Virus record (IMG/VR): IMGVR_UViG_3300028553_000121
Location: 1-29,608 of that record
DNA: 29,608 bases
Source: a virus
Direction: 5' to 3' (one strand)
Of this stretch, positions 2,715 to 23,227 are shown in pieces. Numbering within the stretch: the stretch's first letter is position 1; each line of letters starts with the position of its first letter. A model generated the notes under the pieces. That model did no database searches and was not told the DNA's origin. It saw only the letters and a program-made list of their open reading frames with translations. A program made the translations under genes and the position numbers.

Positions 2715-2746
2715 TAAAACCCCATCTTAATAGGTGGGGTTTATTT
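2715..2746. terminator. Bidirectional terminator hairpin
   Basis: Stem AAACCCCA / TGGGGTTT with a 10-nt loop lies between the convergent genes ending at 2710 (+) and 2745 (-). Confidence 0.8.
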
Positions 2747-3416
2747 ATTTATTGATAATTCTGCCTTTTACCCACCCTTCGTTTAAAAAAGTAGATAAAC
2801 CGTCTTTTTTAATTTTTTTATTTTGATTATCTTTTGTAATCCAAATTGTACCAAATTGTGAATTTGTTTCACCTAAACCTACATTTTTTTTTATCATAGA
2901 CATTTTCTTTTTTGACTCCTCTGAGTGTTTTTTGCCTGTCCAATCATAAGTGAAGTTTTTTAATTTCCCCTCAAGATGTCTTTTTTTTCCTGATTTGGAC
3001 ATTGTTTCTGAATGTTTTTTACGGAATTCTTCATCATTCTTTAATTTTTCTATGAAAATCTTTTTTCCAAGTTCAGAACCTTTACGTTGGAAATTTAAAA
3101 AATGTTTTTCATCAATGAACCCACCTGACTCACCTCCAACTACCAAATTCATACACAAATTATCTAATAATAATTCTTTATTAACTATTTCTTTTTCTTT
3201 TTCCAATAAAATTTTTCTGCTTGAAAAAAATTCTAAAATTTCTTTAGTGTGGTTTTCTTGGCCGTGATAGTTTATGGAATTCCATAATCTTTTACCACTT
3301 CCAAAATAACGATCGTTTAAATTATCAGTAGAATGTATACCAATATAAAATCTATGGGTTTTTTTACAAGTTATTTTATAAAGATAGTGGTATTTTCTAT
3401 TTTCTGCTCTCATCAT
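2745..3416 (-). CDS. GIY-YIG homing endonuclease (free-standing)
   Basis: About 224 residues from the tandem ATGs at 3416/3413. The N-terminal GIY-YIG nuclease domain shows YLYKITCKKTHRFYIGIHST, where the YKI and YIG halves carry the two family motifs. It continues with DRYFGSGKRLWNSI and a Glu-rich helix (LLEKEKEIVN) supplying the usual catalytic Glu region, then NLVVGGESGGF. The C-terminal part has a NUMOD3-like DNA-binding repeat (TGKKHSEESKKKMS). These enzymes cut DNA at intron- or gene-free sites and spread their own gene. A longer frame reaches 3500 but enters the tmRNA 3' end, so that extension is rejected. An ATATTTAT motif at 3432-3439 precedes the chosen start. Confidence 0.88.
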   Translation of the reverse strand: MMRAENRKYHYLYKITCKKTHRFYIGIHSTDNLNDRYFGSGKRLWNSINYHGQENHTKEILEFFSSRKILLEKEKEIVNKELLLDNLCMNLVVGGESGGFIDEKHFLNFQRKGSELGKKIFIEKLKNDEEFRKKHSETMSKSGKKRHLEGKLKNFTYDWTGKKHSEESKKKMSMIKKNVGLGETNSQFGTIWITKDNQNKKIKKDGLSTFLNEGWVKGRIINK

Positions 3417-3431
3417 ATATTCTTTTATTAT

Positions 3432-3439
3432 ATAAATAT
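3432..3439 (-). promoter_or_regulatory. ATATTTAT upstream motif
   Basis: On the - strand it reads ATATTTAT followed by ATAATAAAA, 15 nt before the GIY-YIG start codon at 3416. Confidence 0.45.
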
Positions 3440-3464
3440 ATGATAAGAACAAAAACTTCCGATG

Positions 3465-3843
3465 TGGAGATACGGGGAATCGAACCCCGGTGTCGCCCAT
3501 CTTAACTATTAAGGACTACATGTTTAGGACAACATTATTCGCAATGTTCCGAACTACTTGATTTTTATATCCCCCAAAATCAACAAAATCGGCCAATTCA
3601 TTTTTAGGGATGAGAATTAGTTAGACAACCCTATAGTACTCCTGTTCCTGAGTGAATGTACCCCGACTCGAAAGTAATGACCTATTAACTAGGCTACTAC
3701 CGTTTCTTCTGAACGGATTAAACCGACAGCAGAAAGTTTGTCAAAGATGTTGCCATCTGTGTTTTAAACCAGTTTAACAGACTTAGTTCAGGTCTGACAT
3801 GCCCCTAATAACCAACAATGTCGATCGATGCCAATTTATCCCC
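3465..3843 (-). ncRNA. ssrA: tmRNA (transfer-messenger RNA)
   Basis: The - strand transcript begins GGGGATA and its 3' end reads TATCTCC plus discriminator A. These form a 7-bp acceptor stem with a G-U pair at position 3, the alanyl-tRNA identity signal. The T arm is perfect (CGGGG-TTCGATT-CCCCG). The 5' domain has the conserved-looking AGGGGCATGTCAGACC (compare AAGGUGCAUGCCGAGG in E. coli). Inside, GCA at 3753 opens a short frame ATSLTNFLLSV ending TAA at 3718-3720. The TAA sits in the loop of a stem made by CTTTCTG..CGG and CCG..CAGAAG, as in helix 5 of known tmRNAs. The last six tag residues align with NYALAA (N-F-L-L-S-V). The genome shows CAT rather than CCA after the discriminator, so CCA would be added after transcription. 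It rescues stalled ribosomes and tags the released peptide. Confidence 0.92.
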
Positions 3844-6751: not shown

Positions 6752-6777
6752 AAAAGGGACTATTCAGTCCCTTTTTT
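6752..6777. terminator. Bidirectional terminator overlapping the clp stop codon
   Basis: Stem AAAAAGGGACT / AGTCCCTTTTT with ATTC loop. The clp stop codon (complement of 6760-6762) is part of the stem, so this is a compact shared terminator for the convergent genes. Confidence 0.85.
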
Positions 6778-8037
6778 CTTTTTATTCTTCTTTGGTGTCA
6801 TTAACACCACTTTTTCTTCTTCCACTGTAAGTTCATATTTCTCGTTCTCAACTATTTTCCCATTCAAGACTTCCTCAGATATGAAATCCTCAATTTGGTC
6901 TTGTATGGCTCGTTTTATTGGCCTTGCACCATATGTTTCATCAAACCCAACTTTGGATATCAATTCCAATACTTTTTCATCACAAGTAATATTATATTTC
7001 AAACCATTTAATCTGTTTATCAATTTGTCAATTTCAAGTTTAACAATTTGTTTAACTTCTTCTTCTTTTAGGGTATTGAATACAATAACTTCATCTATTC
7101 GGTTTAAGAATTCTGGAGCAAAGAATTTCTTAAGTTCTTTTTTCAACATGTCCCTTTTTTGTTCTTCTTCAATATAAGAATTTGTTGTGGTTTTGAATCC
7201 AACTCCAGTTCCGAATTCTTGGAATTTCTTAACCCCCAAATTTGATGTCATAATGATAATACAATTTTTAAAATTGATTTTTCTTCCTAAGCCATCGGTT
7301 AAATGACCTTCATCCAATACTTGGAGTAAGGTTGAAAATACATCCTTATTTGCCTTTTCAATTTCATCAAATAGAATTACAGAATATGGTTTGTTTTTAA
7401 CCAATTCGGTTAATTGTCCTCCCTCATCATAACCAACATAACCTGGAGGGGCCCCAATCAATCTAGATATTGAATGTTTTTCTTGGTATTCTGACATATC
7501 AACTCTGATTAGATTTTCTTCACTACCAAATATTTCTTTGGCTAATTGTTTGGCTAAATATGTATTGTGTGACAAAATACCGTTAGTATAATATCTCCTA
7601 TTAGAATTTTCATTCAATTCAAGATCATACATAATTTCCTTATAACCTAAATTAGTTATTTCTAACACCTCAGATTCAATTAAATTGCCGTTATTATCAG
7701 ATACCATAACAAACGAACCAATATTTAAATCTTTAACAAAGATTTCAGTTAAACCAATTGGTTCAAAAGTAATTTCATAATATTCGGTAACAAATACAAT
7801 ATGATTATCCGCACATTTAAGTTCTTTACCATCAGATAATTTTAAATGATACACCTCATAAGGGATTGTTTCATGTAATGCCTCAATATCAATAAACCCA
7901 TCATCAGTTAAAACTTCGTATTCGGTTATTTTAGTCGTTTTGGTTATCTTTTTTAATGACTCTAATTCATGTCTATCTAATAAAAAAACATTATCTGAGT
8001 TTTCAATTAAATTCCTTATTTCTTCTAATTTATTCAT
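6760..8037 (-). CDS. ClpC-like AAA+ ATPase, C-terminal half with C-intein
   Basis: 425 residues. Residues 1-158 are the C-terminal half of a split intein and residues 159-425 are the second AAA+ domain from its Walker A Thr onward. The extein starts TYLAKQLA and completes the P-loop GSTGVGK-T left open by the gene at 9662. It then shows the pore loop GYVG (199-202), Walker B VILFDEIEKA (about 220-229), sensor-1 IIIMTSN, arginine-finger region FLNRIDEV and sensor-2 GARPIKRA. A VGF tripeptide follows the SNLG segment, at the place of the ClpP-docking loop of ClpC. The ATG lies 1 nt after the stop of the endonuclease gene, so the two are translationally coupled. Trans-splicing would give a 674-residue ATPase (407 + 267). 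Confidence 0.92.
   Translation of the reverse strand: MNKLEEIRNLIENSDNVFLLDRHELESLKKITKTTKITEYEVLTDDGFIDIEALHETIPYEVYHLKLSDGKELKCADNHIVFVTEYYEITFEPIGLTEIFVKDLNIGSFVMVSDNNGNLIESEVLEITNLGYKEIMYDLELNENSNRRYYTNGILSHNTYLAKQLAKEIFGSEENLIRVDMSEYQEKHSISRLIGAPPGYVGYDEGGQLTELVKNKPYSVILFDEIEKANKDVFSTLLQVLDEGHLTDGLGRKINFKNCIIIMTSNLGVKKFQEFGTGVGFKTTTNSYIEEEQKRDMLKKELKKFFAPEFLNRIDEVIVFNTLKEEEVKQIVKLEIDKLINRLNGLKYNITCDEKVLELISKVGFDETYGARPIKRAIQDQIEDFISEEVLNGKIVENEKYELTVEEEKVVLMTPKKNKKKKGTE
7564..8037 (-). mobile_element. C-intein of the split Clp intein
   Basis: 158 residues. The splicing block B is present as KCADNHIVF with its His. Block F shows GYKEIMYDLELNEN and RRYYTNGIL, and block G ends LSHN directly before Thr (+1) of the extein. 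The first 40 residues (MNKLEEIRNL..) are an extra helical lead-in before EVLTDDGFIDIEAL. The N-part holds only block A, so the split lies unusually early. Confidence 0.9.
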
Positions 8038-8038
8038 C

Positions 8039-8314
8039 TTATTTAGTTAAAAAATTTATACATTTATTTATAATTTCTTGTTTATTACCCCATCTATATT
8101 CTGAATCCCATATAACTAATATTTCAAAACCTTGTTTATTTGCTTGAAATAATTTCTTTTCGTCTTTCTCCCACATTTCTTGTGCTGTAATGTTTTTTCT
8201 AAATGGGTTTGGATAATCCGAAGCATTATATTTATTTGGGTTACCGTGATAATCATCCCCATTGTATTCAATAATTTTTTTATTTTTCAAATCGGTAAAA
8301 TCATATAACCACAC
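8039..8314 (-). CDS. Vsr-like (EDxHD-type) homing endonuclease, apparently 5'-truncated
   Basis: 91 residues from a GTG at 8314. The core motif NKKIIEYNGDDYHGNPNKY and the later AQEMWEKDEKKLFQ and GFEILVIWDSEYRWGN match Vsr-fold homing endonucleases that lie between split intein halves. The reading frame stays open back to 8371, encoding SLPIHNGEYKIEKENGG, which fits as the preceding strand of the same fold (compare the terL endonuclease). That stretch has no start codon and overlaps the end of the N-intein gene in another frame. The gene is therefore probably a remnant or is started at the GTG with a shortened fold. Stop and next ATG are 1 nt apart. Confidence 0.75.
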   Translation of the reverse strand: MWLYDFTDLKNKKIIEYNGDDYHGNPNKYNASDYPNPFRKNITAQEMWEKDEKKLFQANKQGFEILVIWDSEYRWGNKQEIINKCINFLTK

Positions 8315-8336
8315 GCCACCATTTTCTTTTTCTATT

Positions 8337-9662
8337 TTATACTCTCCATTGTGTATCGGTAATGATATTTTCTATTTTTATTGTTTTTATTTCACCAGTT
8401 ATTTTATTTCTAACAATTATTTCCGTATCTCCACTAATACACTTACCCACCCCAGTTGAACCTAAGAATATGAATGAACCAATTGGTTTATTGGGGTCTT
8501 TAATCCCCAATCTATTTCTTCTGATAGCTTTGGCGATTTTCATTACAGCGTCGGATTGACCAATAACTTTTGATGATAAATTATCACCCAATGTTGATAG
8601 TTTATTGGTTTCATCTGAATTCATTTTTGATATTGGTATTTTTGTCATATTGGACACAACCTCATATACTAGCTCAACGGAAATTTCTTTCTTTTCGTTT
8701 AACAAATCGGATTCAAATTTTTTCTTTTCTTCATCTAGTTTATCCAATATTTTAGTTTCCTTATCTCTTAAATCAGCCGCCAATTCATAATTTTGACTTT
8801 TAACAACTTCAATCTTTTGTTGTTTGATATCTTGAGCTTTCTGTTTCAAATCTTCAATAATTTGTGGCATCTTAGTATCAACTTGACTTCTTGCACCAAC
8901 TTCATCAATAATGTCAAAGGCTTTGTCAGGAAATTCTCTATCTGTGATATATCGTTCCGCCAAATCAACACAAAGTTTTAGGACTTCATCGCTATAAGTT
9001 ACTTTATGATAATTTTCATATTTGTCTTTAGTGTTTGTTAAGATATTTAACGTTTCTTTTTTTGTTGAGGGGTCAACAATTACTTTTTGGAATCTTCTTT
9101 CTAATGCCCCATCTTTTTCAAAGTTCTTTCTATATTCATCTAGGGTTGTCGCACCAATACATTGGATTTCCCCTCTTGCTAATGCTGGTTTGAATATGTT
9201 GGAGGCATCTAATGACCCTGATGAATTTCCAGCACCAACTATTTGGTGGATTTCATCAATGAATAGAATTATATTTGGAGCATTTTGAAGTTCATCAATA
9301 ATGATTTTCATTCTTTCTTCAAATTGTCCTCTATATTTTGTTCCAGCGACAATGGATGTCATATCTAGGGACATAATTCTTTTGTCCATTAGATTTCTTG
9401 GACATTCTCCATTTAATATTTTAAGGGCAAGACCCTCTACTATAGCCGTTTTACCGCAACCAGGTTCTCCGATGATAATTGGGTTATTCTTTTTTCTTCT
9501 TGAAAGAATTTGTGCAATTCTAGTTATTTCTCTATCTCTACCTACCACCGGATCTAATTTTCCTTCTTCGGCAAGTTTGATTAAATCTTTTGCAAAGTTA
9601 TTTAACACTGGTGTGTCCCCTTTGCCCTTGTTTGAGTAGTCTCCGTCTTTTGAATCTATCAT
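8337..9662 (-). CDS. ClpC-like AAA+ ATPase, N-terminal half with N-intein
   Basis: 441 residues: 407 of ATPase and 34 of N-intein. It lacks the double Clp-N domain and starts directly before AAA-1, with Walker A GEPGCGKT (65-72), pore loop GTKYRG (107-112), Walker B FIDEIH (134-139) and RRFQKV arginine finger. The linker carries a UVR-like motif (VVKSQNYELAADLRDKE), typical of ClpC rather than ClpB, and no long M-domain. AAA-2 begins near DNLSSKVIGQSDAV and stops inside its Walker A at GSTGVGK, where the intein starts with Cys408. Without splicing the second ATP site cannot form. The role would be unfolding proteins for refolding or degradation with a ClpP-type peptidase; no clpP is in the window. 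Confidence 0.92.
   Translation of the reverse strand: MIDSKDGDYSNKGKGDTPVLNNFAKDLIKLAEEGKLDPVVGRDREITRIAQILSRRKKNNPIIIGEPGCGKTAIVEGLALKILNGECPRNLMDKRIMSLDMTSIVAGTKYRGQFEERMKIIIDELQNAPNIILFIDEIHQIVGAGNSSGSLDASNIFKPALARGEIQCIGATTLDEYRKNFEKDGALERRFQKVIVDPSTKKETLNILTNTKDKYENYHKVTYSDEVLKLCVDLAERYITDREFPDKAFDIIDEVGARSQVDTKMPQIIEDLKQKAQDIKQQKIEVVKSQNYELAADLRDKETKILDKLDEEKKKFESDLLNEKKEISVELVYEVVSNMTKIPISKMNSDETNKLSTLGDNLSSKVIGQSDAVMKIAKAIRRNRLGIKDPNKPIGSFIFLGSTGVGKCISGDTEIIVRNKITGEIKTIKIENIITDTQWRV
8340..8441 (-). mobile_element. N-intein of the split Clp intein (34 residues)
   Basis: Block A is CISGDTEIIV with the nucleophile Cys at 8441-8439, followed by KTIKIENI and a divergent tail TDTQWRV before the stop. 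Block B is missing and is instead at the C-half, so this is a short-N atypical split. The last residues lie in DNA that is open in the endonuclease frame, which suggests the natural end of the N-intein was replaced. Confidence 0.88.
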
Positions 9663-15444: not shown

Positions 15445-16455
15445 ATGAGTTTAACAAAAGAACAAGTTATGATTGAGTATGTAAAGTGTATCAAAGATAC
15501 ACCTTACGCTCTTAAAACATATTTGGAAACATACGACAACACCGTATCAAAATATGTCCCCTTGGAGTTATTTCCTGACCAAATTTCATTATTAAATGAT
15601 TATGAAGATTATAATGAAAATATCGCATTAAAATATCGTCAGGCTGGGGTGTCAACGGTAACTGCGGCTTGGATATCTAAGAAAATAGCTTTTGCTAATA
15701 AAAAGAAACCTGAGAAAATTTTAATTATTGCCAACAAATTGGATACATCCCAAGAAATGGCAAATAAGATAAGATTGTTTATTGCCCAATGGCCTAGTTG
15801 GGTTGGAATTGATTTCTCCAAAGATAAAGACTCCCAAAAACATTTCAAAACAAATAATGGGTGTGAAGTAAAAGCGGTTGCAACGTCAAAGGATGCTCTT
15901 CGTGGTTTTACACCAACAATCCTAGTATTTGACGAAGCTGCGTTTATTGATGCCGACTCAGACTTTTGGGCAGCTTGTATGGCCTCACTATCAACTGGGG
16001 GTAAGGTTATTGTGGTATCAACACCAAATGGATATGACCCAATTTATTATGAAATCTATAACCAAGCAAATAGGGGAATGAATGATTTCAAAATATCTGA
16101 AATGTTTTGGTTTAGAGACCCAAGATACACAAAAGATTTATACCTAGTCAAAACCAAAGATACAGTCCACTACCTACTCAATAAAACTGAGTATAGTAAA
16201 GATGATATTATAAGTTGGGATAATATACCATTTGAGAATAGAAACTTCGAAGAACTCAAAATTATAATGAGTACAGGGTATAAACCTTGTTCATCTTGGT
16301 TTGAGGGTATGGTGAAGAAATTGAAATACGATAAGAGAAAGGTATCTCAGGAATTAGAGTGTGTTGATTATAATACAATGGTAACACTACGAGACAAAAA
16401 TACAAATGAAATTTTTGATGTTAGAATTGGTGATTTATATGAAAATCTATTGTAG
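15445..16455 (+). CDS. Terminase large subunit, N-terminal ATPase part with N-intein
   Basis: 336 residues: 305 of terminase and 31 of N-intein. The ATPase shows a phage-type Walker A ALKYRQAGVST (61-71, compare SRQLGKTT in T4 gp17), Walker B TILVFDEAAF (158-167) and a coupling motif region VIVVSTPNG. The extein ends QELE, where T4 gp17 has the linker to the nuclease domain. It powers DNA translocation into the prohead through the portal. The protein stops after the N-intein, so the nuclease half must be joined by trans-splicing. Assembled length would be 305 + 51 + 230 = 586 residues, close to the size of T4 gp17. Confidence 0.95.
   Translation: MSLTKEQVMIEYVKCIKDTPYALKTYLETYDNTVSKYVPLELFPDQISLLNDYEDYNENIALKYRQAGVSTVTAAWISKKIAFANKKKPEKILIIANKLDTSQEMANKIRLFIAQWPSWVGIDFSKDKDSQKHFKTNNGCEVKAVATSKDALRGFTPTILVFDEAAFIDADSDFWAACMASLSTGGKVIVVSTPNGYDPIYYEIYNQANRGMNDFKISEMFWFRDPRYTKDLYLVKTKDTVHYLLNKTEYSKDDIISWDNIPFENRNFEELKIIMSTGYKPCSSWFEGMVKKLKYDKRKVSQELECVDYNTMVTLRDKNTNEIFDVRIGDLYENLL
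16360..16452 (+). mobile_element. N-intein of the split TerL intein (31 residues)
   Basis: Starts Cys-Val-Asp-Tyr-Asn-Thr (block A) and ends RIGDLYENLL before a TAG stop. Only block A is present. From memory it resembles the 25-residue N-part of AceL-TerL in length, in the DLYxxL-like end and in insertion site in terminase. Confidence 0.9.
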
Positions 16456-16491
16456 AATATAGTTCTTGAGTTACTTTTCATTAAAATTGTG

Positions 16492-16499
16492 ATATTTAT
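16492..16499 (+). promoter_or_regulatory. ATATTTAT upstream motif
   Basis: ATATTTATTTAT ends 4 nt before the ATG at 16504 of the endonuclease gene, inside the gap between the two terL pieces. Confidence 0.35.
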
Positions 16500-16503
16500 T
16501 TAT

Positions 16504-17685
16504 ATGGAACTTAAAGAACTCAAATCAAAAATAGAAGAAACTGGATATATTGACAATGTTAAAATTGGAAATTATTTCCATATGAAATACCCCTCAATTT
16601 ATTCTGAAGTTATAAAAATAACATCTTGTTTAGAAGATTCATATTGTGACAACAAACTTTTTAGAGCTAGGGTTATCTTCATTTTAAAATATAATTTAGA
16701 CGTTAACAAAATTAAAAACGACAAAGGATGGTTTCGTTTTAATAGAAAAAAAGATGATTTTTTTGAAAAAAATATTGACTATGTGAAACAGGGTTGGGAA
16801 ACAAGTAAGTGTAACTCGACTAATAACTTTTTAAGTTTAGATGAAACTATTAAAATACTTAGAACAGAAGATTGTTATAAAAATTACTTAGGGAGGTCAA
16901 AAAATAGAACTTTAATTAAAGAAAATATCAAATTATATGATTCTATTTACCAACACACAAAATTTATGGATTTTTTTAATAAAAATAGTAACAAATTCTC
17001 TATGAGAATTTTATTTTTAGTTAATAAGAATGGTGAAATAAATCAAATAAAGTGTAAAAGTTGTAACGTAAATTTTACTTCATTTAACTATTCAATAGGT
17101 GATTATAATGAAAATTGTGTAAATTGTTTTCATAATACTATTAATCATTATCCGACAATTGGTTATTTTAAAAAAAAATATGGTGACGAATATCAAAAAT
17201 TTTATGATGAAGATAGAAAAAGGGTTTCTAATTTAAAAGTTAATAGTAAACAATGGTTTATTAGGAAATACGGTGAATGTAATGGGGTTAAAAAATACGA
17301 AGAATATTTATCAAACAGAATTGAGATTCTTGAGGGTATTAAATCAAAAAAATATTCAAAAATATCTCAAAAACTTTTTTGGTTAATATATGAAAAATTA
17401 AATGAAGAGGAGAAAAAAAATTGTTGGTTTAAAGAATTAAATAAAGAGGTATTAGTTAAAGTAAGTGAAAACAAATTTTATTTTCCTGATTTTTTGATGG
17501 GTAAAAAAATAATTGAATATGATGGTAAATATTGGCATCAACAAGATGATGATGATATAAGAAATTCATTATATAAAAAAAATGGATATGATATAATGAT
17601 AATTAATGAGGATGATTTTAGTAGAGTCCATATAAGTGATAATATAATTAATAATTGTGTAAATTTTTTAAGAAATGAAATATAA
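16504..17685 (+). CDS. Vsr-like homing endonuclease inserted between split terL genes
   Basis: 393 residues from the ATG at 16504 (an upstream GTG at 16489 is less likely because it lies in the promoter-like motif). The N-terminal two thirds are Lys/Asn/Tyr-rich and include DETIKILRTEDCYKNYLGRS and a four-Cys zinc-ribbon-like set (CKSC at about 181-184, CVNC about 25 residues later). The C-terminus carries the Vsr-fold nuclease core FYFPDFLMGKKIIEYDGKYWH and GYDIMIINEDDF. This is a full-length relative of the short endonuclease in the clp locus. The stop overlaps the next gene's ATG (17675) by 11 nt, so the C-terminal terL piece is probably translated from the same message. It spreads the split-intein locus by homing. 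Confidence 0.85.
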   Translation: MELKELKSKIEETGYIDNVKIGNYFHMKYPSIYSEVIKITSCLEDSYCDNKLFRARVIFILKYNLDVNKIKNDKGWFRFNRKKDDFFEKNIDYVKQGWETSKCNSTNNFLSLDETIKILRTEDCYKNYLGRSKNRTLIKENIKLYDSIYQHTKFMDFFNKNSNKFSMRILFLVNKNGEINQIKCKSCNVNFTSFNYSIGDYNENCVNCFHNTINHYPTIGYFKKKYGDEYQKFYDEDRKRVSNLKVNSKQWFIRKYGECNGVKKYEEYLSNRIEILEGIKSKKYSKISQKLFWLIYEKLNEEEKKNCWFKELNKEVLVKVSENKFYFPDFLMGKKIIEYDGKYWHQQDDDDIRNSLYKKNGYDIMIINEDDFSRVHISDNIINNCVNFLRNEI

Positions 17686-18001
17686 TAACGGTAAATATGA
17701 AATATCTAGTCCAGAAGGATTTGTTGATTTTTTAGGGGTTCAAAAACTACAAAGAAAAACTATTGAAATATCATTTTCAAATAATTTAACTCTACGCGGA
17801 TCTTTAAATCATACTATTTTTGATTTTGATAATCACCCAATTGAACTTTCAAATATTAAAATTGGAGACTCTATTAAATCTTTTGATGGTAACTTGGTTG
17901 TTGTTGATATACTAAACTATGAGGATGAAACTGATGTGTATGATATAATTGACTCAGGTAAATTACATTTATATTACACTAATAAGATTATTTCACATAA
18001 T
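17675..18001 (+). mobile_element. C-intein of the split TerL intein (109 residues)
   Basis: It contains EISSPEGFVDFLGVQK, block B as LRGSLNHTIF, then GDSIKS, block F DVYDIIDSGKLHLYYTNKI and block G ISHN before Cys (+1). The first half has the same order of motifs as the AceL-TerL C-intein as I remember it (SPNGFxxFxGIQK, SINH). It starts before block B, as the Clp C-intein does. Confidence 0.9.
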
Positions 18002-20074
18002 TGTAATTTTCTTGGATCTGGTGATAATGTATTTGACTCATTATTAATGCAAAAAGTAAAAGACAATTACATAAAAGAACCCCAAAATAAAATGATGGGT
18101 AATTCTTTATGGATATGGAAAGAACCTGTGATGGGACACAAATATGTTATGGGTTGCTTACCTCCAGGTGAAAAAGTATTAACAAATTTTGGGTTGAAGA
18201 ATATTGAGGATGTGACTTTTAACGAGTTATTAGTTAATGAAACTGGTAATTATGTTAATATTATTAACAAACAAATATATCCAGTAATTGATGAAGATAT
18301 CTATACAATAAAAGTAGATAATACATTTAGAACAACAACTTTTACAAAAGAACATCCAATTTTAATAAGTAAAACAATATTAAAAAGAAATTATAAGAAA
18401 AATAATAAAGATTATCAATTTAATGAAAGATATTGGGATTTTGATTTTAAATATGTTAAGACTGAAGATATTGAAGTTGGGGATTGGATTAAAGTTCCAA
18501 ATCAATATTTTAATAAAAAAATAGAAAATATTGATAACTATTGGAAAATTTCTGAAAAAGTAAGAACTGATTTTAATATTAGTTCGCCACTAAATAATAA
18601 AGAGTTTTGGTGGTTTATAGGTATGTGGTTAGGCGATGGTTGGTTAGAACAAAAAAATGATAACTATTTAATTGGTATTTGTTTTGATAAAAAACAAAAA
18701 TCATATTTATATGAAATGGAAAAAATTATTTTTAAATTATTTAATCGTAATCCAACTTACATTGATAAGGAGAGTTCTGATAATTTAGTTTTTAATAGTA
18801 AATTTTTATATTATTTTTTATTGGAAAATTTTGGTAGATATTCATATGGTAAAATGATAAGTGAATGGGTAAAAACAATTCCTAATGAATTTAAATATGA
18901 GTTAATTCGTGGTTATTTTGATAGTGATGGATGTTGGGTTAAAGTTAAAAAAAAGGATAAATATAACTCTAAGTTAAGCTTTGTAAGTATTAGTTTAACA
19001 CTATTAGAGTCAATACAAGATATTTTATTTTCAATTGGTATAATATCATCACTAAACTTATTAAGAAACCTAGGTGAAATTACATTTAAAAATAAATTAT
19101 ATAAAACAAAAGAAACATATTCTTTAAATTTAGGAAATAATGATTCATTGGAATTACTGCGTTTTATTAATAATAAAGATGATATTAAACTACAAAAATT
19201 TAATATTAATGAATTCTCAATAGTTAATAAAAGAATAATTAGTTCATGCCATTTTAATCAGACTAAAGAATTTATTTTTTTTAGAGTAAAAAATATTAAA
19301 AAAAATAAATTTACAGGTAATGTTTATAATTTTGAGTGTGAAACAAATACATTTATGTGTCATCATATAACAACGCATAATTGTGATGTTAGTCGTGGAG
19401 ATAGTGAAGATTTTAGTGCGTTCCAAATAATTGATTTTGATGAAAGAGAACAAGTTGCCGAATATGTGGGAAAATTACCCCCAGATACAATGGCTGAAAT
19501 ATGCTATAAATGGGCAAATATGTATAACTGTTTTATTGTAATAGATATAACTGGTGGTATGGGGGTATCAACCTCAAGAAAATTACAAGAAATGGGTTAT
19601 AAGAATTTATATGTTGATGGTGTTGATTTGGCGAATAAATGGAAGTATGACCCAAAAACATTGGATAAAATCCCCGGACTAAATTTTAATAACAAACGTG
19701 TTCAGATTATTGCTTCATTTGAGGAAGCTATGAGACACGAATTTAAGATATATAGTTCAAGGTTATTTGATGAGATGAATACCTTTATTTATGTGAGTGG
19801 TAGACCTGACCACCAAAAGGGACAACATGATGACCTTATTATGTCAATTGCAATGGCGACATATGTTGCAGAATCATCTTTCAGTAGTTTAGAAAAAGTT
19901 ACGGAACAAACAAAGGCAATGTTGGAATCTTGGTCTGTATCTAATAATGAAAATATGGGAAAACAATTGGATTTTAATCCAGTAATACCATTTGGACACG
20001 AAAGAATAAATCAAAGAAATCAAAATGTAAGTAAAGATGACTATATGAAATACTCTTGGTTATTTGGAAGATGA
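17675..20074 (+). CDS. Terminase large subunit, C-terminal part: C-intein, short extein, second (LAGLIDADG) intein, nuclease domain
   Basis: 799 residues in five parts: C-intein (1-109), 51 residues of terminase (CNFLGSGDNVF to MGHKYVMG), a complete intein (161-569), and 230 residues of terminase nuclease. After splicing the nuclease motif reads VMG-CDVSRGDSEDFSAF with the catalytic Asp, then VIDITGGMGVST and finally QHDDLIMSIAMA with the last acidic cluster, the order seen in T4 gp17. Until both inteins leave, neither the motor-nuclease link nor the nuclease active site exists. The ATG at 17675 overlaps the endonuclease gene. Confidence 0.93.
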   Translation: MKYNNGKYEISSPEGFVDFLGVQKLQRKTIEISFSNNLTLRGSLNHTIFDFDNHPIELSNIKIGDSIKSFDGNLVVVDILNYEDETDVYDIIDSGKLHLYYTNKIISHNCNFLGSGDNVFDSLLMQKVKDNYIKEPQNKMMGNSLWIWKEPVMGHKYVMGCLPPGEKVLTNFGLKNIEDVTFNELLVNETGNYVNIINKQIYPVIDEDIYTIKVDNTFRTTTFTKEHPILISKTILKRNYKKNNKDYQFNERYWDFDFKYVKTEDIEVGDWIKVPNQYFNKKIENIDNYWKISEKVRTDFNISSPLNNKEFWWFIGMWLGDGWLEQKNDNYLIGICFDKKQKSYLYEMEKIIFKLFNRNPTYIDKESSDNLVFNSKFLYYFLLENFGRYSYGKMISEWVKTIPNEFKYELIRGYFDSDGCWVKVKKKDKYNSKLSFVSISLTLLESIQDILFSIGIISSLNLLRNLGEITFKNKLYKTKETYSLNLGNNDSLELLRFINNKDDIKLQKFNINEFSIVNKRIISSCHFNQTKEFIFFRVKNIKKNKFTGNVYNFECETNTFMCHHITTHNCDVSRGDSEDFSAFQIIDFDEREQVAEYVGKLPPDTMAEICYKWANMYNCFIVIDITGGMGVSTSRKLQEMGYKNLYVDGVDLANKWKYDPKTLDKIPGLNFNNKRVQIIASFEEAMRHEFKIYSSRLFDEMNTFIYVSGRPDHQKGQHDDLIMSIAMATYVAESSFSSLEKVTEQTKAMLESWSVSNNENMGKQLDFNPVIPFGHERINQRNQNVSKDDYMKYSWLFGR
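18155..19381 (+). mobile_element. Contiguous LAGLIDADG intein in the TerL nuclease motif
   Basis: 409 residues. Block A CLPPGEKVLTNFG, block B TTTFTKEHPILI, two LAGLIDADG helices (FIGMWLGDGWLEQ and IRGYFDSDGCWVK, each with its acidic residue), block F GNVYNFECETNTFMCHH and block G TTHN before Cys. It is inserted between VMG and CDVSRGD, the catalytic motif of the nuclease. Confidence 0.95.
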
Positions 20075-20275: not shown

Positions 20276-23227
20276 ATGGAACAAAATCAAAATAATTTAA
20301 CGGTTTGGCAGAGGTTATCCAAAGCCTTTGGACCAAATGCTTTATTAAATCAAGATTATCCAACTTATAAATTTGATAAGAAGGAATTATTACGTACAAC
20401 ATCAAAACAAGAGTACGAAAAAGAGCTTTTACAAGCTCAACAAACTTATTACTTAGGTAATCAGTGGACAAAGATTGAAAGTAATCTCTATACACAAGCA
20501 ATATATTATGAACCAACTAGATTGGCTTCTTTTTATGATTACGAATCTATGGAGTATTCAATACATGGTGAAACTAAAATTGCAACACCCAATGGTTTTA
20601 TCACGATTAAAGAATTAGCTGATAAAGGAAGAGATTATGAGTTTATAACATATGCTTATGACCACAATTTAAAAAAAGTTGTGCCGGCTAAAGCAAGAAA
20701 CGCTCATTACACTCGTGATGAAATGACTTATAAAATTACATTTGATGATGATTCTCATATTATAGCAACATATGGGCACAGATTTCTTAAACGAGATAGT
20801 GTATTTGAATACGTTGAAAATTTAAAACCTGGTGATTCTATGATGCCTTTTTATCGTAAATCATTTTACAATAATGAGAAATATAATTGGGTTTATACTT
20901 GTAATTCTGATGAAGGACATAATGGGTGGATTTCTGAACATAATCTTATTGCTGAATGGTTTTATGAAACCAAAGTAAAAGAAGATGAGGAAGTACATCA
21001 CGTAGATTTCAATGGTAAAAATAATTTACCTGAAAATCTTCAAATTATGACTATATCGGAACATAGAGCTTACCACGCAAGATTAAATAATGAAAAATTA
21101 TGGGCTAATCCCAAATACAGACAAAAAATGTCTGAGGTGGCAAAAAGAAAAGGTAAGTTAATTTGGGGTGGAAGAAGAAGTGGTGATAATAATCCATCAT
21201 ATATAAAAATTCCATTTGATGAAATTGTTAGGGTAGCAAAAGAAAAAAGGGGGGTAGAAGAAACAGCAAAAACTTTAGGGGTATCATATAGAAAGATTCA
21301 AAATGAATTAAGGTTTAATGGTTTTAAAAATTGGGACGATTTTCTTTCAGTATATAAAATAAAAAAATATCTAAAAGTTTCAGAAGACTATCATTTAATT
21401 AATTTCAAATTAATACCTTGGGATTTATTAGTTGATGTAGCAAAAAAAGAAAAATTAATGAAAAATGTTTGTAAAACATTGGACATTACAATGGGTAAAT
21501 TACGTTCAACTATAAGACAAGGTGGATATAATAATTGGACTACATTTATGACAGCATATGGATTAGAGATTGGTAAAACAGGAAGAAAAAAAGAAATTAA
21601 AGAAAATGTAGTAAACCATAAAATTGTTTCTATAGAACCTTATGGAATTGTTCCTGTTTATGATTTAACTGTACCTGGATATAAAAATTTTGCAACAGAC
21701 ACTATATTCTCACATAATACCCCAGAAATATCCGCAGCATTAGACATATATGGAGAAGAATCAACAACTGTGGATAAGGATGGTTTTATGTTACAGATAT
21801 TTTCAGAGTCAAAAAGGATAAAAGGTATTTTGGCCGACTTATTTAATAACGCATTGGATATTAATACAAATTTACCAATGTGGACAAGAAATACCTGTAA
21901 GTATGGTGATAATTTTGTTTATTTGAAACTTGATCCAGAGAAAGGAATTGTTGGTTGTATGCAATTACCGAACATTGAAATTGAACGTTTGGAGAGGGGT
22001 ATGCCCGCTCAAGCAACAAGACAAAATATTGAAGAACCCGCAGAAAACAAAGGACTAAGATTTAAATGGAAAGCCAAGGATATGGAATTTAATTCTTGGG
22101 AAATTGCCCACTTCAGATTGTTGGGTGATGACAGAAAACTTCCATACGGCACATCAATGTTGGAGAAAGCAAGACGTATTTGGAAACAATTATTATTGGC
22201 TGAAGATGCGATGTTGATATATAGAACATCAAGAGCACCTGAGAGAAGGGTATTCAAAGTGTTTGTTGGTAATATGGATGACAAAGATGTTGAGCCATAT
22301 GTACAACGTGTTGCTAACAAATTTAAACGTAGTCAAGTGGTTGATTCTCAAACAGGTAATGTTGATATGAGATTTAATCAAATGGCGGTGGATCAAGATT
22401 ACTTTATTCCTGTTCGTGACCCAGCTCAAGCAAGTCCAATTGAAACTTTGGCGGGCGGAACAAACTTGGGTGAGATTGCGGATATTGAATATATCCAAAA
22501 GAAACTATTGACAGCATTAAGAGTTCCAAAAGCATTCTTAGGTTTTGAAGAACCAGTTGGAGATGGTAAAAATTTATCATTAATTGATATCCGTTTTGCT
22601 AGAACAATCAATAAGATACAAAAATCAATGATATCTGAATTAAATAAAATAGCTATCATTCATTTATTCTTATTGGGTTTTGAGGATGAATTAAATAATT
22701 TTACACTAGGTTTAACTAACTCATCTAAACAGGCTGATTTATTAGGTCTTGAAGTTTGGAAAGAAAAAATTGCAGTTTACAAAGAATGTGTTACAGCATT
22801 ACAAGATGGCACAGCCCCAACATCACATACTTGGGCAAAGAAACATGTATTAGGATTTTCAGAAGAAGAAATTAAGACTGACTTATACCAACAACGTATT
22901 GAAAGGGCTGTTGGAGCTGAATTAACTAATACGGCAACAATTATAACCAAGACTGGTATATTTGATAATATTGATAAATTATACTCTCAGAAGAGTGGTA
23001 GTACGGCATCAGCGAGTGGAACACCACCTCCCCCTGGTGGAGGAGCACCACCACCTCCTGGGGGTGAAGCTCCAATGGGATTACCTGAAAGTGAAAAGAA
23101 AGATAATTTAAAAATACTATTGGAATCTGATGGGTTATTAGATGATGAAACTTTCATTGATTTGTCAAAAGCAAAAAATTCCTTGGGTGAAATGGAGATT
23201 CATCTAAACAAACTTTTAAATGGTTAA
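20276..23227 (+). CDS. Portal protein interrupted by an HNH intein
   Basis: 983 residues: 94 of portal, a 387-residue intein, then 502 of portal, giving 596 residues after splicing (T4 gp20 has 524). The junction restores FYDYESMEY-TPEISAALDIYGEES. The body shows gp20-like features, including WKAKDMEFNSWEIAHFRLL, YGTSMLEKARRIWKQLLLAEDAMLIYR, RAPERRVFKVFVGN and LAGGTNLGEIADIEYIQKKL. The C-terminus has a Pro/Gly-rich linker (TPPPPGGGAPPPPGG) and a short helical end. The portal forms the ring at one capsid vertex through which terminase pumps DNA and to which the tail attaches. The gene follows a 46-residue gene and precedes the prohead core genes. Confidence 0.93.
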   Translation: MEQNQNNLTVWQRLSKAFGPNALLNQDYPTYKFDKKELLRTTSKQEYEKELLQAQQTYYLGNQWTKIESNLYTQAIYYEPTRLASFYDYESMEYSIHGETKIATPNGFITIKELADKGRDYEFITYAYDHNLKKVVPAKARNAHYTRDEMTYKITFDDDSHIIATYGHRFLKRDSVFEYVENLKPGDSMMPFYRKSFYNNEKYNWVYTCNSDEGHNGWISEHNLIAEWFYETKVKEDEEVHHVDFNGKNNLPENLQIMTISEHRAYHARLNNEKLWANPKYRQKMSEVAKRKGKLIWGGRRSGDNNPSYIKIPFDEIVRVAKEKRGVEETAKTLGVSYRKIQNELRFNGFKNWDDFLSVYKIKKYLKVSEDYHLINFKLIPWDLLVDVAKKEKLMKNVCKTLDITMGKLRSTIRQGGYNNWTTFMTAYGLEIGKTGRKKEIKENVVNHKIVSIEPYGIVPVYDLTVPGYKNFATDTIFSHNTPEISAALDIYGEESTTVDKDGFMLQIFSESKRIKGILADLFNNALDINTNLPMWTRNTCKYGDNFVYLKLDPEKGIVGCMQLPNIEIERLERGMPAQATRQNIEEPAENKGLRFKWKAKDMEFNSWEIAHFRLLGDDRKLPYGTSMLEKARRIWKQLLLAEDAMLIYRTSRAPERRVFKVFVGNMDDKDVEPYVQRVANKFKRSQVVDSQTGNVDMRFNQMAVDQDYFIPVRDPAQASPIETLAGGTNLGEIADIEYIQKKLLTALRVPKAFLGFEEPVGDGKNLSLIDIRFARTINKIQKSMISELNKIAIIHLFLLGFEDELNNFTLGLTNSSKQADLLGLEVWKEKIAVYKECVTALQDGTAPTSHTWAKKHVLGFSEEEIKTDLYQQRIERAVGAELTNTATIITKTGIFDNIDKLYSQKSGSTASASGTPPPPGGGAPPPPGGEAPMGLPESEKKDNLKILLESDGLLDDETFIDLSKAKNSLGEMEIHLNKLLNG
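20558..21718 (+). mobile_element. HNH-type intein in portal protein
   Basis: 387 residues. It starts with Ser (SIHGETKIATPNGF) rather than Cys, block B reads HIIATYGHRF, and it ends IFSHN before Thr (+1). The endonuclease is HNH-type (NLIAEWFYETKV, HHVDFNGKNNLPENLQIMT, EHRAYHARL). Two similar helix-turn-helix-like modules follow: IPFDEIVRVAKEKRGVEE.. with KNWDDF, and IPWDLLVDVAKKEKLMKN.. with NNWTTF. These probably read the target DNA. Confidence 0.92.

What the first reader, a model, noticed from the sequence alone, without database searches (positions are those of the whole stretch)
6760..9662. ClpC-like ATPase broken by a split intein exactly inside the AAA-2 Walker A
The N-part ends GSTGVGK-CISGDTEI and the C-part resumes LSHN-TYLAKQLA, so splicing rebuilds GSTGVGKT. 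The gene is in two pieces with an endonuclease gene between them (fractured-gene layout as described by Dassa and co-workers for other proteins). I do not know a described split intein in a phage ClpC, so this may be new. The second ATP site exists only after trans-splicing, which could delay Clp activity until both halves accumulate.
Basis: partly seen in the sequence, partly recalled or inferred. Interest (0 to 1): 0.85.

Follow-up and report, generated by a model that had tools for sequence, protein, structure and literature searches.

The report
Phage Clp ATPase split by intein
A phage gene for a Clp-type protein-unfolding motor is broken into two genes whose protein products probably stitch themselves together through a self-splicing split intein placed inside the motor's ATP-binding loop; it is a new case of a known trick, and it belongs to a larger family of such inteins in the ATP-binding loops of several kinds of phage motor.

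Summary
A Clp/Hsp100 ATPase gene (minus strand, 9662-6760) is in two ORFs. The first ends GSTGVGK|C plus a 34-residue intein-N; the second starts with a 158-residue intein-C ending LSHN|T. The break lies between K and T of the second Walker A. In 76 of the 80 viral relatives kept, the two extein ends are directly contiguous. Three more records carry the same broken gene.

Best explanation: an atypically split intein in a fractured gene, spread by homing. Relatives have it split with a long Vsr-like endonuclease ORF, with a short one, with none, and unsplit. The window's endonuclease is a remnant: about 300 N-terminal codons are gone.

[quoted passage not shown] Some Clp genes are in three pieces.

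The suggested delay of Clp activity has no support. Splicing is untested. Novelty: a new member of a known kind, within a wider family that ten paper searches did not show described.

The parts
8442..9662 (-). N-extein of the Clp ATPase: first AAA domain, UVR-type middle part, start of second AAA domain, ends GSTGVGK (407 aa)
8340..8441 (-). intein-N fragment, 34 aa, C1; its last four residues QWRV read into the former endonuclease gene
8337..8339 (-). stop codon of the N-part
8042..8350 (-). endonuclease remnant: open frame of 103 codons (GTG start at 8314 gives 91), corresponds to the Vsr/I-Bth0305I-type nuclease domain of full-length homologues, without the N-terminal ~300 residues
   Evidence: phrog_22677, 8e-24; fold of the L092 homologue
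7564..8037 (-). intein-C fragment, 158 aa, with a ~38-residue N-terminal extension shared by most relatives aligned, ends LSHN
6763..7563 (-). C-extein: rest of second AAA domain from Thr(+1) of Walker A, and ClpB_D2-small domain (267 aa)
8436..8447 (-). upstream splice junction: codons Gly-Lys | Cys1-Ile
7558..7569 (-). downstream splice junction: codons His-Asn | Thr(+1)-Tyr

Best explanation
The clp gene was invaded at the codons for K|T of its second Walker A by a mobile intein with an endonuclease gene between its N and C fragments. The gene is therefore expressed as two polypeptides. The 34-residue intein-N and the 158-residue intein-C should bind each other, fold into one Hint domain and excise themselves, joining 407 and 267 extein residues into a 674-residue ATPase with an intact GSTGVGKT (inferred, not shown). 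The element spread by homing between phages (inferred from the trees); in the window's lineage the endonuclease has since lost its N-terminal part by deletion, while the intein stays because removing it imprecisely would destroy the ATPase (inference). It belongs to a family of mostly atypically split inteins at Walker A GK|T/S of several phage P-loop ATPases.
For: Zero-gap empty sites in 76 of 80 relatives kept. The same broken gene in three other viral records: L106 identical over 10474 nt, L082 three mismatches, L083 one gap. Of 27 loci found with the intein-C alignment, 25 carry it at this site; in 2 of these the N-part is off the contig; of the other 23, 17 are split with a long endonuclease ORF, 4 with only a short one (110-125 aa), 1 with none, 1 is contiguous (L093) (near-identical records are counted singly). 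Purifying selection, window against six relatives: intein-C dN/dS 0.09-0.23, exteins 0.05-0.19 where defined. Terminal SHN and the Ala-Asp-x-His of block B are invariant in 21 rows. Intein model: Foldseek top hit VidaL, E 1.4e-5, and the 12 hits at E<=0.001 are all inteins; nearest solved sequences Cat, gp41-1, VidaL. Horizontal spread: the intein tree rejects window + L013 as a clade (p-AU 0.003) though their exteins share a 16-row clade of support 100; at least 7 changes of state at this site on the extein tree. One AAA_2 match over the cut-off in each of 18 related records, so no second clp there.
Against: No splicing was measured. The first residue of the usual TxxH motif (recalled) is Ala here (ADNH), in all 21 rows. 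Intein-N evolves fast outside its core (dN/dS 0.85 against L013, undefined against L027). Pfam and NCBIfam intein scores of the window's C-part lie below the curated cut-offs. The structure model is partial (mean pLDDT 61; TM-scores 0.31-0.44 in the 12 best rows) because only one row held the intein-N. The intein tree has no starred branch, and the pair tested was chosen after the sequences had been seen. Near-identical records may come from linked samples.
Confidence: 0.88

Rival explanations
1. Decayed clp: the insertion broke the gene and the halves are pseudogene pieces that no longer join.
For: The endonuclease is truncated and no experiment shows splicing; two intein-free relatives have damaged clp genes (L034, L068), so the gene can be lost.
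Against: Both halves are open in full, dN/dS of exteins and intein-C is far below 1, splice residues are conserved across lineages, and the same intein occurs contiguous in L093.
Confidence: 0.05
2. The split is an adaptive gate: Clp activity is delayed or tuned because both halves must accumulate before the second ATP site exists.
For: The second Walker A is incomplete in either half.
Against: 76 of 80 relatives kept have the unbroken gene; presence is patchy and the intein tree disagrees with the extein tree; other members sit in unrelated ATPases.
Confidence: 0.05
3. Sequencing or assembly artefact joining unrelated pieces.
For: The window is a 29.6-kb virus record of IMG/VR type, which may be a fragment.
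Against: Three further records carry the same arrangement and diverged relatives the same split at the same codon.
Confidence: 0.01
4. The two ORFs are made as one chain by readthrough or frameshifting and the intein splices in cis.
For: A contiguous version exists in L093.
Against: In the window a stop codon, an out-of-frame endonuclease remnant with its own stop, and a separate ATG lie between the halves; in relatives the insertion is up to 2.8 kb with a full endonuclease ORF.
Confidence: 0.03

Closest known systems
Fractured genes with split inteins (Dassa and co-workers 2009, recalled, not read; the layout is described in passages of PMC7891396 for AceL NrdHF)
   Same: Host gene in two ORFs, intein halves at the broken ends, endonuclease sequence between them, phage-like metagenomic source.
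   Different: Host is a Clp/Hsp100 ATPase; the endonuclease of the window is only a remnant; AceL NrdHF has a GIY-YIG endonuclease and a 98+48 split (PMC7891396 passages).
Atypically split inteins AceL TerL, GOS TerL, VidaL, PolB16 (PMC13014065 and PMC10189870, passages seen)
   Same: Short intein-N: 34 aa here, 15-37 aa reported; best structural hit VidaL, best solved sequence hit the Cat consensus intein with atypical split site, 6dsl.
   Different: Insertion in Walker A of Clp; a ~38-residue extension at the start of intein-C.
Contiguous terminase Walker A inteins of Ackermannviridae phages (e.g. Vibrio phage VAP7, Klebsiella phage May)
   Same: Full-length similarity to the contiguous relative L093 (36% and 32%), same GK|T insertion point.
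   Different: Contiguous, in TerL.
'Classic' P-loop inteins between Lys and Thr of Walker A, e.g. TerL1-a of mycobacteriophages (PMC5050341, passages seen)
   Same: Exact insertion point.
   Different: The term 'split intein' does not occur in that main text; the relation of those inteins to this family was not tested.
I-Bth0305I / Vsr-type endonucleases
   Same: Nuclease domain of the full-length homologue in L092 aligns to Vsr 1cw0 (Z 11.2, rmsd 5.3, 128 aligned) and I-Bth0305I 3r3p (Z 10.3, rmsd 2.7, 94 aligned).
   Different: Window copy lacks the region before the nuclease domain; unrelated-looking rows (a mitoribosomal protein and FASTKD4) reach Z 9.3 in the same list.

Membership tests
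Fractured-gene split inteins | Host gene in two ORFs with intein-N and intein-C at the broken ends | tested here: met
Fractured-gene split inteins | Endonuclease-coding sequence between the halves | tested here: met
   Met only as a truncated copy in the window; long ORF in 17 of 23 evaluable relatives
Fractured-gene split inteins | Protein trans-splicing of the two products | not testable with these tools
   needs co-expression
Atypically split inteins | Intein-N of about 15-37 residues | tested here: met
   34 aa; range from PMC13014065 passages
Inteins, Hint fold | Catalytic residues C1, block B His, terminal HN, nucleophile at +1 | tested here: met
   Thr of block B (recalled as usual) is Ala
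Inteins, Hint fold | Hint fold | tested here: met
   On the contiguous relative L093 only, partial model; the window's own split pair was not folded
Clp/Hsp100 double-ring ATPases | Two AAA domains and the D2-small domain | tested here: met
   whole-length intein-free relative L002
ClpA/ClpB/ClpC equivalogs | Score above the curated NCBIfam cut-off of one equivalog | tested here: not met
   best ClpB 824.7 against 1232.1 bits for L002; so 'Clp-like with UVR motif', not filed as ClpC proper
ClpC | UVR motif between the AAA domains | tested here: met
   PF02151 22.9 bits over cut-off 21.5
I-Bth0305I/Vsr-type endonucleases | Vsr-like nuclease fold | tested here: met
   On the full-length homologue L092; Foldseek alone not significant, E 0.13 and ranked behind mitoribosomal rows; window remnant aligns to L092 at 72% identity
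I-Bth0305I/Vsr-type endonucleases | Endonuclease activity on the intein-free site | not testable with these tools
   needs enzyme assay

The most novel reading that the evidence does not exclude
One family of mostly split inteins has specialised on the Walker A K|T/S junction and moved between at least seven phage P-loop ATPase sites (Clp domain 1, Clp domain 2, ClpX, clamp loader, SbcC-like, DnaB helicase, terminase). In phages such as L097 and L104, where both Clp P-loops hold paralogous split inteins with equal GVGK|T junctions, the halves could also pair crosswise and yield a second, one-ring Clp protein from the same three genes, so that trans-splicing makes alternative products. The probability given is for the whole statement with cross-splicing; the first sentence alone I put at about 0.8.
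Probability: 0.08. Interest if true: 0.8.

Novelty: new member of a known kind. Interest (0 to 1): 0.5.

Why it matters
It adds a Clp-type ATPase to the proteins that phages make in pieces and join afterwards. The relatives lay out stages of one homing cycle at one codon: empty, invaded with a long endonuclease ORF, endonuclease shortened, endonuclease gone, and a contiguous form. Some forty-six distinct natural short intein-N sequences at one conserved kind of junction are also raw material for protein-ligation tools, and Clp genes in two or three pieces make it testable whether related split inteins in one protein stay orthogonal.

Tried and rejected
Adding intein-N rows to improve the intein model failed: MAFFT scattered the short fragments, so that alignment was not folded. 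The model used is good only in the core. A scan of 84,980 bacterial and archaeal species genomes with the intein alignment found 26 pattern matches, none confirmed; absence there is only as good as the two short patterns used. ClpP was found in 2 of 18 related records (the control rang in 12 of 14 genomes), so a phage-encoded protease partner is not general in these records. ARAGORN found no tRNA in the window. The L092 endonuclease had no significant Pfam or solved-sequence match; the L013 one had REase_MTES_1575 (1.5e-4) and DUF559 (6.7e-4), both below the curated cut-offs. In Foldseek the Vsr and I-Bth0305I rows stand behind mitoribosomal and retrotransposon rows and none reaches E 0.001; the Z-scores are the better evidence. 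The P-loop family tree rests on 121 columns, four outgroup rows, the simpler model and an unsettled bootstrap. The motif demands G(K/R) before the intein, so it cannot by itself show that all members follow GK; 18 of 80 loci gave no match (some cut by contig ends, some diverged; L263 looks contiguous). In one search two of 80 loci (L246, L282) gave no intein end and were left out. In the tree set 9 loci were dropped as short or incomplete and identical rows merged (128 to 97).
Full report
What is there. On the minus strand a Clp-type ATPase gene is broken in two. The N-part (9662-8337) holds the first AAA domain, a UVR motif and the start of the second AAA domain, and ends GSTGVGK followed by 34 residues beginning with Cys and a stop. 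The C-part (8037-6760) begins with 158 residues ending LSHN, then TYLAKQLA and the rest of the second AAA domain plus the ClpB_D2-small domain. Between them lies an open frame of 103 codons. The window is a virus record of 29,608 bases with T4-type portal and capsid genes.

Is the break exact and real? Of these, 73 have a gap of exactly zero between the two extein pieces, and so have three more that are cut upstream by the contig end (L025, L053, L078). L013 and L027 carry an insertion at the same codon. L034 lacks the P-loop and L068 has a frameshift. Records L082, L083 and L106 carry the window's arrangement with three mismatches, one gap and no difference over 9.7-10.5 kb. There is one AAA_2 match over the cut-off in the window and one in each of 18 related records, so no second clp; records may be fragments.

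The intein. A contiguous copy of the same intein sits at the same site in L093: GVGK|CFLSDT...ILSHN|TYLAK, 173 residues, one frame. Alignment to it shows that the split falls after the short first part, and that the first ~38 residues of the window's intein-C are intein sequence also present in the contiguous form. Sequence search of solved structures with L093 gives the Cat consensus intein, gp41-1 and VidaL first. The predicted structure is weak overall (pLDDT 61), but its 12 Foldseek hits at E<=0.001 are all inteins, VidaL first, with TM-scores of 0.31-0.44. Window against six relatives, dN/dS of intein-C is 0.09-0.23 and of the exteins 0.05-0.19 where defined; synonymous sites are near saturation in the exteins. 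Against: Ala replaces the usual Thr of block B in all 21 rows (motif recalled), intein-N is variable (dN/dS 0.12-0.85, one undefined), and library scores for inteins are below the cut-offs.

The endonuclease. In L092 and others an ORF of about 405 residues lies between the halves; the window frame aligns only to its last ~103 residues, at 72% identity. Compared with L092, the window DNA runs from the end of intein-N (ATTACCGATAC) straight into the endonuclease at its codons for H-N (ACACAAT), so that about 300 codons are gone and intein-N gained the tail QWRV. Constraint on the remnant (dN/dS 0.06-0.22 in four comparisons) may date from before the deletion. The full-length protein has a nuclease domain like Vsr (Z 11.2, rmsd 5.3, 128 aligned) and I-Bth0305I (Z 10.3, rmsd 2.7, 94 aligned), with two other rows at Z 9.3; Foldseek alone is not significant (E 0.13). 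Of 27 loci fetched with the intein-C alignment, 25 have the element at this site; N-parts of two are off the contig; the other 23 are 17 split with a long endonuclease ORF, 4 split with only a short one, 1 split with none, 1 contiguous. Three sets of three records among them are near-identical and are counted singly.

Spread. The window's nearest inteins belong to Clp genes only 52-71% identical in the C-extein (L084, L085, L105: intein-C 82%), and synonymous divergence from L084 is lower in intein-N, endonuclease and intein-C (0.36-0.54) than in the exteins (0.68-0.73). The intein tree rejects window plus L013 (p-AU 0.003; with L027 added 0.010), although their exteins fall in one 16-row clade. 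The state of this site changes at least 7 times, of the first-domain site at least 13 times, on the extein tree; that is a quick tree with several long branches, and its loci were partly chosen for carrying inteins.

Other sites in Clp. In the first Walker A there are two further insertion points. GEPG|CGKT holds a different split intein (about 24 + 133 residues): 29 loci, 15 with a long endonuclease ORF (one of them broken in two), 3 with remnants, 9 without, 1 contiguous, 1 cut. GEPGxGK|T holds the window's intein type (L097, L104, L107) or an unrelated contiguous one (L101-L103). The contigs of L013, L092, L097 and L104 therefore encode Clp in three pieces. In L097 the two intein-C fragments share 83 of 129 residues, the two intein-N fragments 14 of 32; in L104 65 of 128 and 10 of 28.

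Beyond Clp. A scan with a broader alignment gave 250 confirmed relatives, of which 80 were kept, some on contigs already seen. By C-extein, 32 are Clp domain 2, 12 Clp domain 1, 34 other, 2 unresolved; all 78 C-exteins listed begin with T or S. Representatives of the others are ClpX (zinc finger in the N-extein), T4-type clamp loader, SbcC-like ATPase, DnaB-like helicase and terminase; one (L301) stayed unnamed. The assignment of the rest was by eye from their C-exteins. A motif search that demands G(K/R)C found an intein-N in 62 of 80 loci: 47 distinct, 46 of them split, 27-55 residues long. In a 68-row tree the 64 P-loop inteins stand on one side of a branch against the window's TerL intein and three GEPG|C inteins (100/95), with at least 15 changes of host site. 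Named phages carry contiguous relatives at the terminase Walker A. The window's C-part matched 441 named phage records, by its Clp part or its intein part; in none did one place cover 80% of it (40 records listed).

What is known. PMC13014065 (passages) gives 15-37 residues for natural short intein-N fragments and names AceL TerL, GOS TerL, VidaL, PolB16. PMC7891396 (passages) describes a fractured-gene split intein from a phage-like contig. PMC10189870 (passages) describes PolB16. PMC5050341 (passages) calls the K|T insertion in Walker A a classic P-loop insertion. Passages seen of PMC5784728 mention ClpP inteins. Ten searches of the open-licence library listed no paper on a Clp ATPase split intein; apart from those five papers the listings were seen as titles and starts of abstracts only. 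Dassa and co-workers is recalled, not read.

Verdict. A mobile, atypically split intein in a Clp ATPase, very probably trans-splicing, with a decayed endonuclease. A regulatory role is possible but unsupported. Interest 0.5: expected by kind, but the breadth of the P-loop family and the three-piece Clp genes are worth a specialist's time.

Noticed in passing
15445-16455, 16489-17685, 17675-20074 (+): The terminase large-subunit gene is fractured too: intein-N of 31 aa (16360-16452), a free 398-residue endonuclease-like ORF (phrog_22677), intein-C of 109 aa (17675-18001) that matches the Cat consensus intein at 1.6e-8. It looks like the AceL TerL type (recalled) and falls outside the Clp intein's family.
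   Followed up: partly
18155-19381 (+): The second terminase piece also carries a contiguous 409-residue intein with a LAGLIDADG domain, so terminase would need one trans- and one cis-splicing step.
   Followed up: partly
about 20561-21718 (+): The portal protein (gp20) carries a contiguous intein of about 386 aa with an HNH match.
   Followed up: no
2745-3500 (-): Free-standing ORF matching a homing-endonuclease PHROG (phrog_314, 3.3e-36).
   Followed up: no
L091, L098, L100, L105 upstream of the intein-C core: In these relatives the frame of intein-C starts earlier and holds extra N-terminal sequence of unknown function.
   Followed up: no
L013 4386-5555 compared with L092 3779-4993 and window 8042-8350: Endonucleases of this intein share their N-terminal part but come with two different nuclease-end versions (window type against L013 type, 38% identical), as if the end was swapped.
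   Followed up: no
L101-L103, first Walker A: A contiguous intein of about 364 aa beginning with Ala (AQPLDAK) in the same Clp gene that has the split intein in the second Walker A.
   Followed up: no
L140 (Aeromonas phage PX29): Named phage whose record already annotates gene 17A 'contains putative N-intein' and 17B 'contains putative GIY-YIG endonuclease and C-intein'.
   Followed up: no
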